A stretch of DNA of 64,000 nucleotides from Deefgea piscis (GTDB lineage: Bacteria > Pseudomonadota > Gammaproteobacteria > Burkholderiales > Chitinibacteraceae): contig NZ_CP054143.1 in the NCBI RefSeq assembly GCF_013284055.1, forward strand, positions 1,240,001-1,304,000, given 5' to 3'. Both the position numbers and the translations under genes were made by a program. Below the pieces are notes generated by a model. It was not told the DNA's origin. It was given only the letters and a program-made list of their open reading frames with translations, and did no database searches. Position 1 is the stretch's first letter, and each line of letters begins with the position of its first letter. Below are positions 17,196 through 19,321 of the stretch, piece after piece.

Positions 17196-17260
17196 CACTT
17201 GCAATTAGCCGTCAACAGGGTGAAGGTTTGAACCTAATCACTCACTCCTTGGGGTAAAAC

Positions 17261-17818
17261 ATGCTAAAAAACACTCGCCATAGCTATGGCAAAGTAGCTC
17301 GTCTATTGCATTGGCTCTGTGCCATCGCGGTGATTACGGCCTTGGCGTGTATTGAGCTGAAAGGCTATTTTCCCAAAGGTGATCCGTGGCGAGATTACTT
17401 AAAAATGGTGCATATTCAAGCGGGTATTATGGTTTTTTTGTTGGTGATTCCGCGCTTTATTTGGCGCACCGCCAATCGCTCGCCGCAGATTACGCCCAGC
17501 CCAGCACCCTTGATTATGAAAGCCGCGGATTTAACGCACTGGGTTTTATATGCGCTGATGTTTTGCATGCCGATTTTGGGCGTAGCCTTTATTCAAGGCT
17601 TTGGTAAGCCGGTAGATTTTTTCGGCTGGATTTTGCCAACGTTGTTCACCATGACCCCAGAAACCGCCAAAGACGTGAAAGACGTGCATGAATTTTTGGG
17701 TAATACGCTGTTGTGGTTAGTGATATTGCACGTCGGCGCTGGGTTGTGGCATCAACGCATTATTAAAGACGATACGATGAGTCGAATGATAGGGCCGATT
17801 CGGCGCGATGATGAGTGA
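17261..17818 (+). CDS. Cytochrome b561-type membrane protein
   Basis: A 185-residue four-helix membrane cytochrome. The pattern is SYGKVARLLHWLCAIAVITAL, MVHIQAGIMVFLLVIPRF, THWVLYALMFCMPILGV and VHEFLGNTLLWLVILHVGAGLWH, with paired histidines (about H17, H51, H146, H160) fitting two b hemes. Such proteins pass electrons between the quinol pool and periplasmic partners, or scavenge superoxide. It follows the cyclase gene by 65 bp with its own GGGGT RBS. Co-transcription is possible. Confidence 0.88.
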   Translation: MLKNTRHSYGKVARLLHWLCAIAVITALACIELKGYFPKGDPWRDYLKMVHIQAGIMVFLLVIPRFIWRTANRSPQITPSPAPLIMKAADLTHWVLYALMFCMPILGVAFIQGFGKPVDFFGWILPTLFTMTPETAKDVKDVHEFLGNTLLWLVILHVGAGLWHQRIIKDDTMSRMIGPIRRDDE

Positions 17819-17893
17819 TGGTCTTGTTTAGATGATGTGTTGATGGTGTGCCTGCGGCACGATTGTTTACAGTCGCAGTCCGCGACGGGGACC

Positions 17894-17923
17894 CTCTTTT
17901 CTTTGTCTCGCCAAAGAAAAGAG
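17894..17923. repeat. Perfect 12-bp inverted repeat in a repeat-like block
   Basis: CTCTTTTCTTTG and CAAAGAAAAGAG enclose a six-base loop. From memory, similar 'TTTCTTTG.CTCGCCAAAGAAA' blocks recur between genes in many Betaproteobacteria. Confidence 0.6.
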
Positions 17924-18097
17924 GGGAAAAGAAAGGCGACCCGAGCGCGCCCAGCTCCGCTGTTCCCTCGATCGATCGTGAGCCAAACGATAAATCTGTT
18001 TGTCTCCCTCCTCACTCGGTGCGCTTGGACGGGTTTTTAAGCCCCAGACCAACGAGCGCGGCACGGCATTAAACCTAATCTAATCCCCGCAATTTGA

Positions 18098-18150
18098 ATG
18101 GGTATTGCCATCTAGGCTTTATTTTTAAAAATCTACCTAGCAATACCCAT
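18098..18150. repeat. GGTATTGC-family palindrome, copy 3
   Basis: ATGGGTATTGC at the left and GCAATACCCAT at the right, with CTAGG/CCTAG inside and an AT-rich loop. This is one of the clearest copies. Confidence 0.8.
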
Positions 18151-18250
18151 AGTTTGTATGATTTTCCCGATGCCAAAAGCATGACTCGTGCTCGACGGCG
18201 CAACGCCTTCGTTTATACTCTTTGGCTTTCCTCTTTTGATCGACTTCACG

Positions 18251-19321
18251 ATGAACAGCCAAGACTTAGAGAATATCAACGTCACTTCGTTTGACGCGAT
18301 GCCCTCACCCGAAGAATTACATGCCCGTTTACCGCTTTCTGAATCCGCCGCCCAAGTGGTGGATGCTGGCCGTGAAGCCTTAAAAAACATTCTGGATCGA
18401 CAAGATGATCGACTGATTGTGGTGGTTGGTCCTTGCTCGATTCATGATCCCGTTGCCGGTTTAGAATACGCGCGCCGTTTGAAAGCACTGCAAGCCGAAG
18501 TCAAAGACAGCTTATTGCTAGTGATGCGGGTTTATTTTGAAAAACCACGTACCACCACCGGTTGGAAAGGCTATATCAACGATCCATTTATGGATGATTC
18601 ATTCCAAGTGGATTTGGGTATGGAAAAAGCGCGGCGCTTTTTGCTCGACGTATGCGAGCTAGGTTTGCCGACCGCCACCGAAGCGCTCGATCCAATCTCG
18701 CCACAATATTTGGGCGATTTAATTGCCTGGACGGCGATTGGCGCGCGCACCACCGAATCGCAAACGCATCGTGAAATGTCATCCGGCCTATCCACGCCAG
18801 TGGGTTTTAAAAATGGTACCGATGGCGATATTAGCATTGCGATTAATGCGATTTTATCTGCTTCGCACCCGCATTCATTCTTGGGTTTGAACGGCCAAGG
18901 CCGAGTATCGATTGTGCGCACGCGCGGCAATCAATACGGGCATGTGGTGCTGCGTGGCGGTGATGGTCGACCCAACTACGACACCGTATCGGTGGCGATG
19001 GCCGAGCAAGCGCTGAAAAAAGCTAAATTACCGTGCAATATCATCGTCGATTGCTCGCATGCCAATAGCTATAAAAAGCCGGAATTACAGCCACTAGTGA
19101 TGAATGACGTGATTAATCAAGTCGTCAACGGTAGCCAAGCTTTGGTGGGTGTGATGATCGAGTCGAACTTGGTCGTTGGCAATCAAAAAATCCCCGCAGA
19201 TTTATCGCAATTGATTTACGGCTGCTCGGTCACCGATGGTTGTATTGATTGGGCCAGTACCGAAAGTATGTTGCGCGATGCCGCGCAACGCTTGGCGGCC
19301 GCCAAAGCCGCTCGCGCTTAA
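18251..19321 (+). CDS. aroG: 3-deoxy-7-phosphoheptulonate synthase (DAHP synthase, class I)
   Basis: A 356-residue enzyme that joins phosphoenolpyruvate and erythrose 4-phosphate, the first step of the shikimate pathway. The class I AroFGH signature is clear: VVVGPCSIHDPVAGLEYARRL, the block MRVYFEKPRTTTGWKGYINDP, ARTTESQTHREMSSGLS, VLRGGDGRPNYD, and the metal-site block IVDCSHANSYKKP. Length is normal. The start is ATG 18251 (MNSQDLEN); the longer frame runs through the palindromic repeat region and is not credible. Which aromatic amino acid inhibits it cannot be told. A duplicated 20-mer spans its stop. Confidence 0.92.
   Translation: MNSQDLENINVTSFDAMPSPEELHARLPLSESAAQVVDAGREALKNILDRQDDRLIVVVGPCSIHDPVAGLEYARRLKALQAEVKDSLLLVMRVYFEKPRTTTGWKGYINDPFMDDSFQVDLGMEKARRFLLDVCELGLPTATEALDPISPQYLGDLIAWTAIGARTTESQTHREMSSGLSTPVGFKNGTDGDISIAINAILSASHPHSFLGLNGQGRVSIVRTRGNQYGHVVLRGGDGRPNYDTVSVAMAEQALKKAKLPCNIIVDCSHANSYKKPELQPLVMNDVINQVVNGSQALVGVMIESNLVVGNQKIPADLSQLIYGCSVTDGCIDWASTESMLRDAAQRLAAAKAARA

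What the first reader, a model, noticed from the sequence alone, without database searches (positions are those of the whole stretch)
17850..18070. Repeat-like block with a perfect hairpin before aroG
The 12-bp perfect inverted repeat (17894-17923) sits in a purine/pyrimidine-skewed stretch that gives open frames on several strands but no protein-like sequence. It looks like a dispersed intergenic repeat often mis-called as a gene.
Basis: partly seen in the sequence, partly recalled or inferred. Interest (0 to 1): 0.3.

Follow-up and report, generated by a model that had tools for sequence, protein, structure and literature searches.

The report
Mobile repeat carrying triple-helix DNA motif
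The block before aroG is an old copy of a small jumping DNA element, present in dozens of places in this genome, that carries a sequence able in principle to fold into a three-stranded DNA hairpin; such motifs are common in bacteria, but the survey I read had not found its best-studied one inside mobile elements.

Summary
The hairpin has 14-bp perfect arms (17892-17905/17912-17925), and the block is one of at least 38 places of a dispersed repeat in this genome. Intact copies are about 275-bp miniature transposons (MITEs) with 26-nt terminal inverted repeats and 8-bp target duplications (7 of 32 perfect; 0 of 992 control pairs). In a genome of the same family, an IS1595-like transposase frame ends in the same terminal repeat. 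The hairpin is followed by a mirror-image purine strand (AAAGAAAA...AAAAGAAA), the layout of a class II intrastrand triplex (PIT element). In 85 of 97 copies purine arm and third strand match in mirror order, through five sequence versions. The same terminal repeats also bound a second MITE carrying the BoxC/TMECO triplex. Many ends lie exactly 11 nt from the foot of a second palindrome. Holder et al. 2015 report no link of TMECO to mobile elements. What the triplex does for the element is inference. The window copy is decayed, and no IS1595 domain (PF12762) was found in its genome.

The parts
17820..17845 (+). left terminal inverted repeat, decayed (6 mismatches of 26; 5 of 24 informative positions)
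17846..18063 (+). conserved interior of the element
   Evidence: at least 38 places in own genome; interiors stay about 87-90% like consensus even where terminal repeats are lost
17892..17925 (.). 14-bp perfect hairpin (arms 17892-17905 and 17912-17925)
17897..17934 (+). class II purine-motif potential intrastrand triplex: Y TTTTCTTT 17897-17904, R AAAGAAAA 17913-17920, third strand AAAAGAAA 17927-17934
   Evidence: only such motif found in the window, 0 in 30 simulated windows; mirror match in copies
18064..18090 (-). right terminal inverted repeat, so decayed that it scores near random (12-13 mismatches); boundary approximate
   Evidence: the same remnant stands at this locus in G001 and G002
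18098..18150 (.). second dispersed palindrome (GGGTATTGC...GCAATACCC), the kind beside which this MITE family inserts
   Evidence: 8 perfect copies in own genome; 11-nt spacing in other copies
17261..17818 (+). upstream gene, cytochrome b561-like
   Evidence: E=2e-32, below cut-off
18254..19321 (+). downstream gene, DAHP synthase (aroFGH family)

Best explanation
The block is an old, decayed copy of a non-autonomous transposon (MITE) of about 275 bp with IS1595-like ends. Copies were inserted into 8-bp targets, often 3 bp beyond the ATACC/GGTAT foot of another dispersed palindrome. Its cargo is a class II intrastrand triplex (PIT) motif: a pyrimidine arm, a purine arm that closes the hairpin, and a mirror-image purine third strand that could lie in the hairpin's major groove. 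A sister MITE with the same ends carries the BoxC/TMECO triplex. Shown by sequence: repetition, ends, target duplications, target spacing, mirror match through several sequence versions. Inferred: that an IS1595-family transposase acting in trans moved it, that the triplex folds (probably only when the strand is single, in replication or transposition), and that it serves the element rather than the host.
For: At least 38 places in own genome. Terminal inverted repeats GGCAATGTTCAGATT..GTGTTGATG at both ends; within 2 mismatches they occur in all 7 genomes of the genus and in 1 of 39 others searched, control pattern 0. 8-bp duplications: of 32 elements 7 perfect and 4 with one mismatch; of 992 cross pairs 0 and 2. 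In G020 (same family) a transposase-like frame ends inside this terminal repeat (IS1595 model NF033547 E=2.4e-12, residues 14-54 of the 77 in hand, below its cut-off; Pfam IS1595 only E=0.03); IS1595 members usually make 8-bp duplications (PMC8101967), and an IS1595-family IS in G014 has TTTTTTAT on both sides. Empty sites are visible where congeners carry separate insertions about 60 and about 10 bases apart (L025/L292, L039/L299). Triplex: 85 of 97 interiors have an exact mirror match of purine arm and third strand in five versions; 39 of these are asymmetric and so tell mirror from direct repeat; none of the parsed ones was a direct repeat unless symmetric. Sister MITE: of 18 TMECO places fetched by the TMECO pattern alone in the genus and G020/G034, 12 have both terminal repeats, 4 one, 2 none. 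Spacing: ATACC ends exactly 11 nt before 18 of 57 recognisable left ends, GGTAT starts exactly 11 nt after 10 of 49 right ends; background per 45-mer 2.4% and 3.3%.
Against: No PF12762 match in any of the 7 genomes of the genus nor in G020, and only the last 77 codons of the candidate transposase are in hand, at contig ends; no complete partner IS was found. The window copy has no intact right end and no target duplication (6 of 8 mismatches). 12 of 97 copies do not fit the exact mirror classes; L042, L044, L302 and L308 have a changed arm and an unchanged third strand. On the tree the covariation rests on few well-supported pairs (5, median p 0.0625; 3, p 0.25), so it is not significant there, and arm and third strand lie within 40 bp and could travel together. 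Interiors are conserved without the ends, which plain MITE decay does not predict. TMECO places in other genera of the family do not show these ends. Holder et al. saw no stable triplex in vivo by footprinting (PMC4666352).
Confidence: 0.8

Rival explanations
1. The conserved interior is the real unit: a host-maintained or separately mobile element (about 220 bp from TTTTAAGTGCC to GCACAGCATC), and the MITE ends are one of several vehicles.
For: 15 copies whose ends are near random still diverge only 13% from consensus inside, against 9.6% for 15 copies with good ends, while end mismatches rise from 6% to 50%; over all 63 copies the correlation is weak (Spearman 0.27, p 0.036). The 14 copies with neither end stop at much the same interior borders, two of them in another genus (L015, L016). 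The window interior is 100% identical over 220 nt to a G002 copy at another locus (99.1% over the slightly longer piece), while flanks are 91-95%.
Against: Intact copies show terminal repeats with duplications immediately outside them, so the whole element does transpose. Gene conversion between copies could give the same pattern: in 27 comparisons of neighbouring loci interior identity averages 92.4% and flanks 91.4% (interior higher in 19), and in 18 of 27 the first copy has a closer interior among the fetched copies of its own genome than in its counterpart; some of these counterparts are separate insertions.
Confidence: 0.3
2. A hairpin-only element (REP-like or terminator-like); the third strand is accidental.
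For: The hairpin is strong and copies sit mostly downstream of genes: 15 tandem, 11 convergent, 1 divergent, 1 inside an ORF, of 28 by simple ORF calls.
Against: The third strand is mirror-matched in 85 of 97; hairpin plus third strand recurs in 10 of 299 genomes (own included) of a phylum sample, with 0 matches for the reversed control pattern; the sequence shows no U-run after the hairpin.
Confidence: 0.1
3. A structured RNA or small regulatory RNA.
For: Consensus folding of 63 interiors gives some helices besides the hairpin; no covariation test was made on them.
Against: No Rfam family reaches its threshold at 17200-18600; purine-motif triplexes cannot form in RNA according to Holder et al. 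(introduction); copies lie on both strands of the chromosome.
Confidence: 0.05
4. A real small protein gene.
For: Open frames of 65-87 aa on both strands.
Against: No family above threshold for the four frames tested; frames overlap on both strands; interiors differ in length by indels (215-238 nt).
Confidence: 0.01

Closest known systems
Intrastrand triplex motifs: PIT elements / BoxC / TMECO (Hoyne and Maher, recalled and as described by Holder et al. 2015, PMC4666352, sections read)
   Same: Class II layout Y-loop-R-loop-third strand, short loops, intergenic, many copies. The sister MITE matches the published TMECO pattern.
   Different: Window motif is A-rich, not TMECO. It lies inside a MITE with ends and target duplications; Holder et al. 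write that by BLAST they did not find the E. coli TMECO associated with transposons, phages or plasmids and never found mobility genes around its sites.
IS1595-family MITEs
   Same: GG-starting terminal repeats, 8-bp duplications, transposase end resembling IS1595 (NF033547)
   Different: Interior is not recognisably a deleted transposase gene but a triplex motif plus conserved sequence; full partner IS not found; frequent fixed distance to a palindrome
REP/BIME palindromes (recalled)
   Same: Short intergenic palindromes, many copies
   Different: Has terminal repeats and target duplications; third strand; no RAYT transposase was searched for

Membership tests
MITE | terminal inverted repeats | tested here: met
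   26-nt TIRs in the family; 32 of 63 copies have both within 7 mismatches, 17 one, 14 none; the window copy has one
MITE | target-site duplication of fixed length | tested here: met
   8 bp in the family; 7 of 32 perfect against 0 of 992; not in the window copy
MITE | short, no transposase inside | tested here: met
   about 275 bp and 213 bp; the window copy's four ORFs match no family above threshold; two copies hold an inserted IS481-like element
IS1595-derived | ends shared with an IS1595-family IS | tested here: inconclusive
   One end of a transposase-like frame in G020 matches with 1 mismatch (NF033547 E=2.4e-12 but below its cut-off); other end and full gene not recovered
IS1595-derived | 8-bp duplications | tested here: met
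   family property from passages of PMC8101967
Class II intrastrand triplex motif | Y arm, complementary R arm, mirror-order third strand 3' of it; stem 6-15 nt and loops 1-6 nt in ITxF, stem >7 and loops 0-10 in Hoyne et al. | tested here: met
   8 perfect triads, second loop 6 nt; first loop 6 nt counted from the hairpin arms, 8 nt counted from the 8 triads (definitions)
Class II intrastrand triplex motif | folds as a triplex in vitro | not testable with these tools
   needs CD/NMR
TMECO/BoxC | CCCTCNCCC-N3-6-GGGNGAGGG-N3-GGGNGAGGG | tested here: not met
   not met by the window motif (sequence); met by the sister MITE, e.g. L058

The most novel reading that the evidence does not exclude
Intrastrand triplex motifs are working, selected parts of mobile elements rather than passive passengers: one transposon family packages two different triplexes (A-rich and BoxC-type) between the same ends, keeps arm and third strand matched by mirror covariation, and places them at palindrome-adjacent sites. 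This would be one route by which such motifs became scattered in bacteria.
Probability: 0.35. Interest if true: 0.75.

Novelty: new variant of a known kind. Interest (0 to 1): 0.5.

Why it matters
BoxC-type triplex motifs have been known since the 1990s (Holder et al.) without a function or a known way of spreading; Holder et al. 2015 considered horizontal transfer but reported no mobile-element link. Here two triplex classes sit inside MITEs with defined ends, target duplications and a target preference. Mirror covariation is a test that ordinary hairpin correction by template switching should not satisfy, because a mirror copy cannot be templated that way (inference). It makes selection for three-stranded DNA testable by sequence.

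Tried and rejected
In-situ inversion of interiors: many matched regions carry the element in opposite orientation, but of 12 pairs compared base by base at least two are separate nearby insertions with visible empty sites, so I do not claim inversion in general. At the window locus G001 and G002 share the right-end remnant with an interior in the opposite orientation; that remains open.

Autonomous partner: 20 places with one listed end in G001, G002, G004 and G020 were fetched; many proved to have a second end at MITE distance, none was seen to be a complete IS, and only the G020 transposase ends were found. PF12762 gave nothing in the genus. Viral contigs with the exact terminal repeat: 0. 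Phage records: no match. Rfam: below threshold only. A literal search of papers for the hairpin letters listed 17 papers, by title unrelated. Paper searches for a triplex in a MITE: 13 listed of 13; 20 of 27; 7 of 7; for IS1595 with MITE (12 listed of 1,268; 8 of 43); for beta-proteobacterial MITEs (20 of 122); for Chitinibacter MITEs (0). In titles and abstract starts I saw no description of this element or of a triplex in a MITE; most of the longer lists was not seen, and the library holds open-licence papers only. The phylogenetic pair test had too few supported pairs to reach 0.05. The simulated-window control is a first-order Markov model, not a shuffle.

Full report
What is there. The best plasmid match is in Chitinibacter bivalviorum (73% over 75% of the query; the other three are short matches in Pasteurella multocida), so a Chitinibacteraceae-like betaproteobacterium is my inference. 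Between a cytochrome b561-like gene and a DAHP synthase gene lies the stated hairpin, with 14-nt arms. The stretch 17850-18070 matches 46 times in its own genome: 27 rows near full length, 4 rows from 2 copies split by an insertion, 9 partial, and 6 that are the palindrome read on the other strand, thus 38 places, a lower bound because 40 of 49 candidates were scored. It matches 31 of 100 genomes searched (own included, 8 candidates scored in each at most), all 7 of the genus.

The element. Lining up 27 full copies shows that similarity runs beyond the given coordinates to GGCAATGTTCAGATTACGTGTTGATG on the left and its inverted copy on the right. Duplicated 8-mers flank these ends: of 32 elements 7 perfect and 4 with one mismatch, against 0 and 2 of 992 cross pairs. 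Same-ended elements of 213 bp and 74 bp exist. This is a MITE. The terminal repeat (2 mismatches allowed) was found in 8 of 46 genomes: the 7 of the genus and G020 of another genus in the family. In G020 it closes the 3' end of a reading frame of which 77 residues are in hand; residues 14-54 match the IS1595 model NF033547 (E=2.4e-12, below its cut-off), Pfam gives E=0.03. IS1595 members usually have 8-bp duplications (passages of PMC8101967). No PF12762 match exists in the genus, so the element now looks stranded here.

The triplex. A scan of the window for a pyrimidine arm, complementary purine arm and mirror-order third strand of at least 8 triads finds exactly one place, 17897-17934; 30 simulated windows gave none. 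This is the class II intrastrand triplex layout described by Holder et al. 2015 (PMC4666352; I saw the abstract, found passages, two results sections, and part 1 of 2 of the introduction and of the discussion). In one of these (G284) the 13 copies fetched, of 39, all lie inside another dispersed repeat of over 500 bp.

Mirror covariation. Among 97 interiors from the genus and relatives, 85 have purine arm and third strand matched exactly in mirror order: A3GA3/A3GA3 in 41, A3GA4/A4GA3 in 30, A2GA4/A4GA2 in 8, AAGAGAA/AAGAGAA in 5, AAGGAAA/AAAGGAA in 1; 12 are other. The symmetric classes cannot tell mirror from direct repeat; the 39 asymmetric ones are mirror. A more open parse of 80 of the 97 gave 77 mirror, 3 neither, and no asymmetric direct repeat. 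Of the 12 others, L042, L044, L302 and L308 have a changed arm with an unchanged third strand, and L041, L047 and L269 are off by one or two bases. The stem type changes at least 27 times on a poorly supported tree of the rest of the interior; the pair tests do not reach significance because only 5 and 3 pairs lie on supported branches. I regard the covariation as strong by sequence but not proven by phylogeny.

Sister element. The 213-bp MITE carries CCCTCTCCC-TTGAT-GGGAGAGGG-TTA-GGGTGAGGG, which fits the published TMECO/BoxC pattern. The pattern (second loop 3 or 4 nt) occurs in 14 of 43 genomes of the family, in all 7 of the genus (8 places in this genome), control 0. The genus plus G020 and G034 hold 52 places; I examined 24 distinct ones: 18 have both terminal repeats, 4 one, 2 none; 5 have duplications with 0 or 1 mismatch. 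Six of the 24 had been fetched only because they had such an end or, for L277, lay at the window locus; of the 18 brought in by the TMECO pattern, 12 have both ends, 4 one, 2 none. TMECO places looked at in other genera (G012, G015, G035, G041, G042) do not show these ends. Holder et al. state that they did not find the E. coli TMECO associated with mobile elements.

Target preference. Among the copies fetched from three species, ATACC ends exactly 11 nt before 18 of 57 recognisable left ends and GGTAT begins exactly 11 nt after 10 of 49 right ends; in this genome's loci the background is 2.4% and 3.3% per 45-mer, against 14 and 8 of 28 copies. The 11 nt are the 8-bp target plus 3. These pentamers look like the feet of a second dispersed palindrome, of which the window has one at 18098-18150; 3 of its 8 perfect copies in the genome stand beside a copy of the MITE. 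Some copies are orthologous, so events are fewer than rows. Of the 24 TMECO places, 12 show exactly 11 nt and 3 show 10.

Unexpected persistence. Interiors stay alike even when ends are gone: 15 copies with poor ends diverge 13% from consensus inside, 15 with good ends 9.6%, while end mismatches go from 6% to 50%; the overall rank correlation is weak, 0.27 (63 copies). The window interior is identical over 220 nt to a copy at another locus in G002, whose counterpart in this genome is reduced to 74 bp. Gene conversion, selection or separate mobility of the interior could cause this; I favour conversion (18 of 27 comparisons) but cannot decide.

How it likely works. Shown: a dispersed MITE with defined ends, target length and target spacing, and a mirror-matched triplex cargo. 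Inferred: a transposase in trans moved it; when the strand is single during replication or transposition the hairpin takes up its third strand; this could stall a polymerase (PIT elements block DNA polymerase in vitro but had no effect in vivo, as reported by Holder et al.) or mark the site for the transposition machinery. I give that functional reading about one in three. For the window locus the copy is old and I expect no effect on aroG beyond spacing.

Noticed in passing
L045 1209-2399 and L046 1121-2311: Two identical 1.3-kb IS481-like elements (396-aa transposase; IS481 model E=2.5e-56 but below cut-off) sit in two different copies of the MITE, 2 bp apart, just 3' of the triplex third strand, with 3-bp duplications by my reading.
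   Followed up: partly
window 18098-18150: Second dispersed palindrome GGGTATTGC...GCAATACCC, 8 perfect copies in the genome; it seems to mark the insertion target of the MITE family.
   Followed up: partly
window 17820-18090 against L275, L276, L277: The same intergenic region differs between congeners: G001 and G002 carry the element in opposite orientation, in G002 with the triplex stretch missing; G005 carries the TMECO-type MITE.
   Followed up: partly
L059 856-929: A 74-bp remnant with good ends whose interior is gone, apparently between short direct repeats GTGCCGC, at a locus where G002 has the full interior.
   Followed up: partly
L254-L266 (G284): A different dispersed repeat of over 500 bp in another proteobacterium carries the same A-rich triplex in all 13 copies fetched, of 39.
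   Followed up: partly
own-genome copies: Gene context of 28 copies by simple ORF calls: 15 tandem, 11 convergent, 1 divergent, 1 inside an ORF, so promoter regions between divergent genes seem avoided.
   Followed up: no
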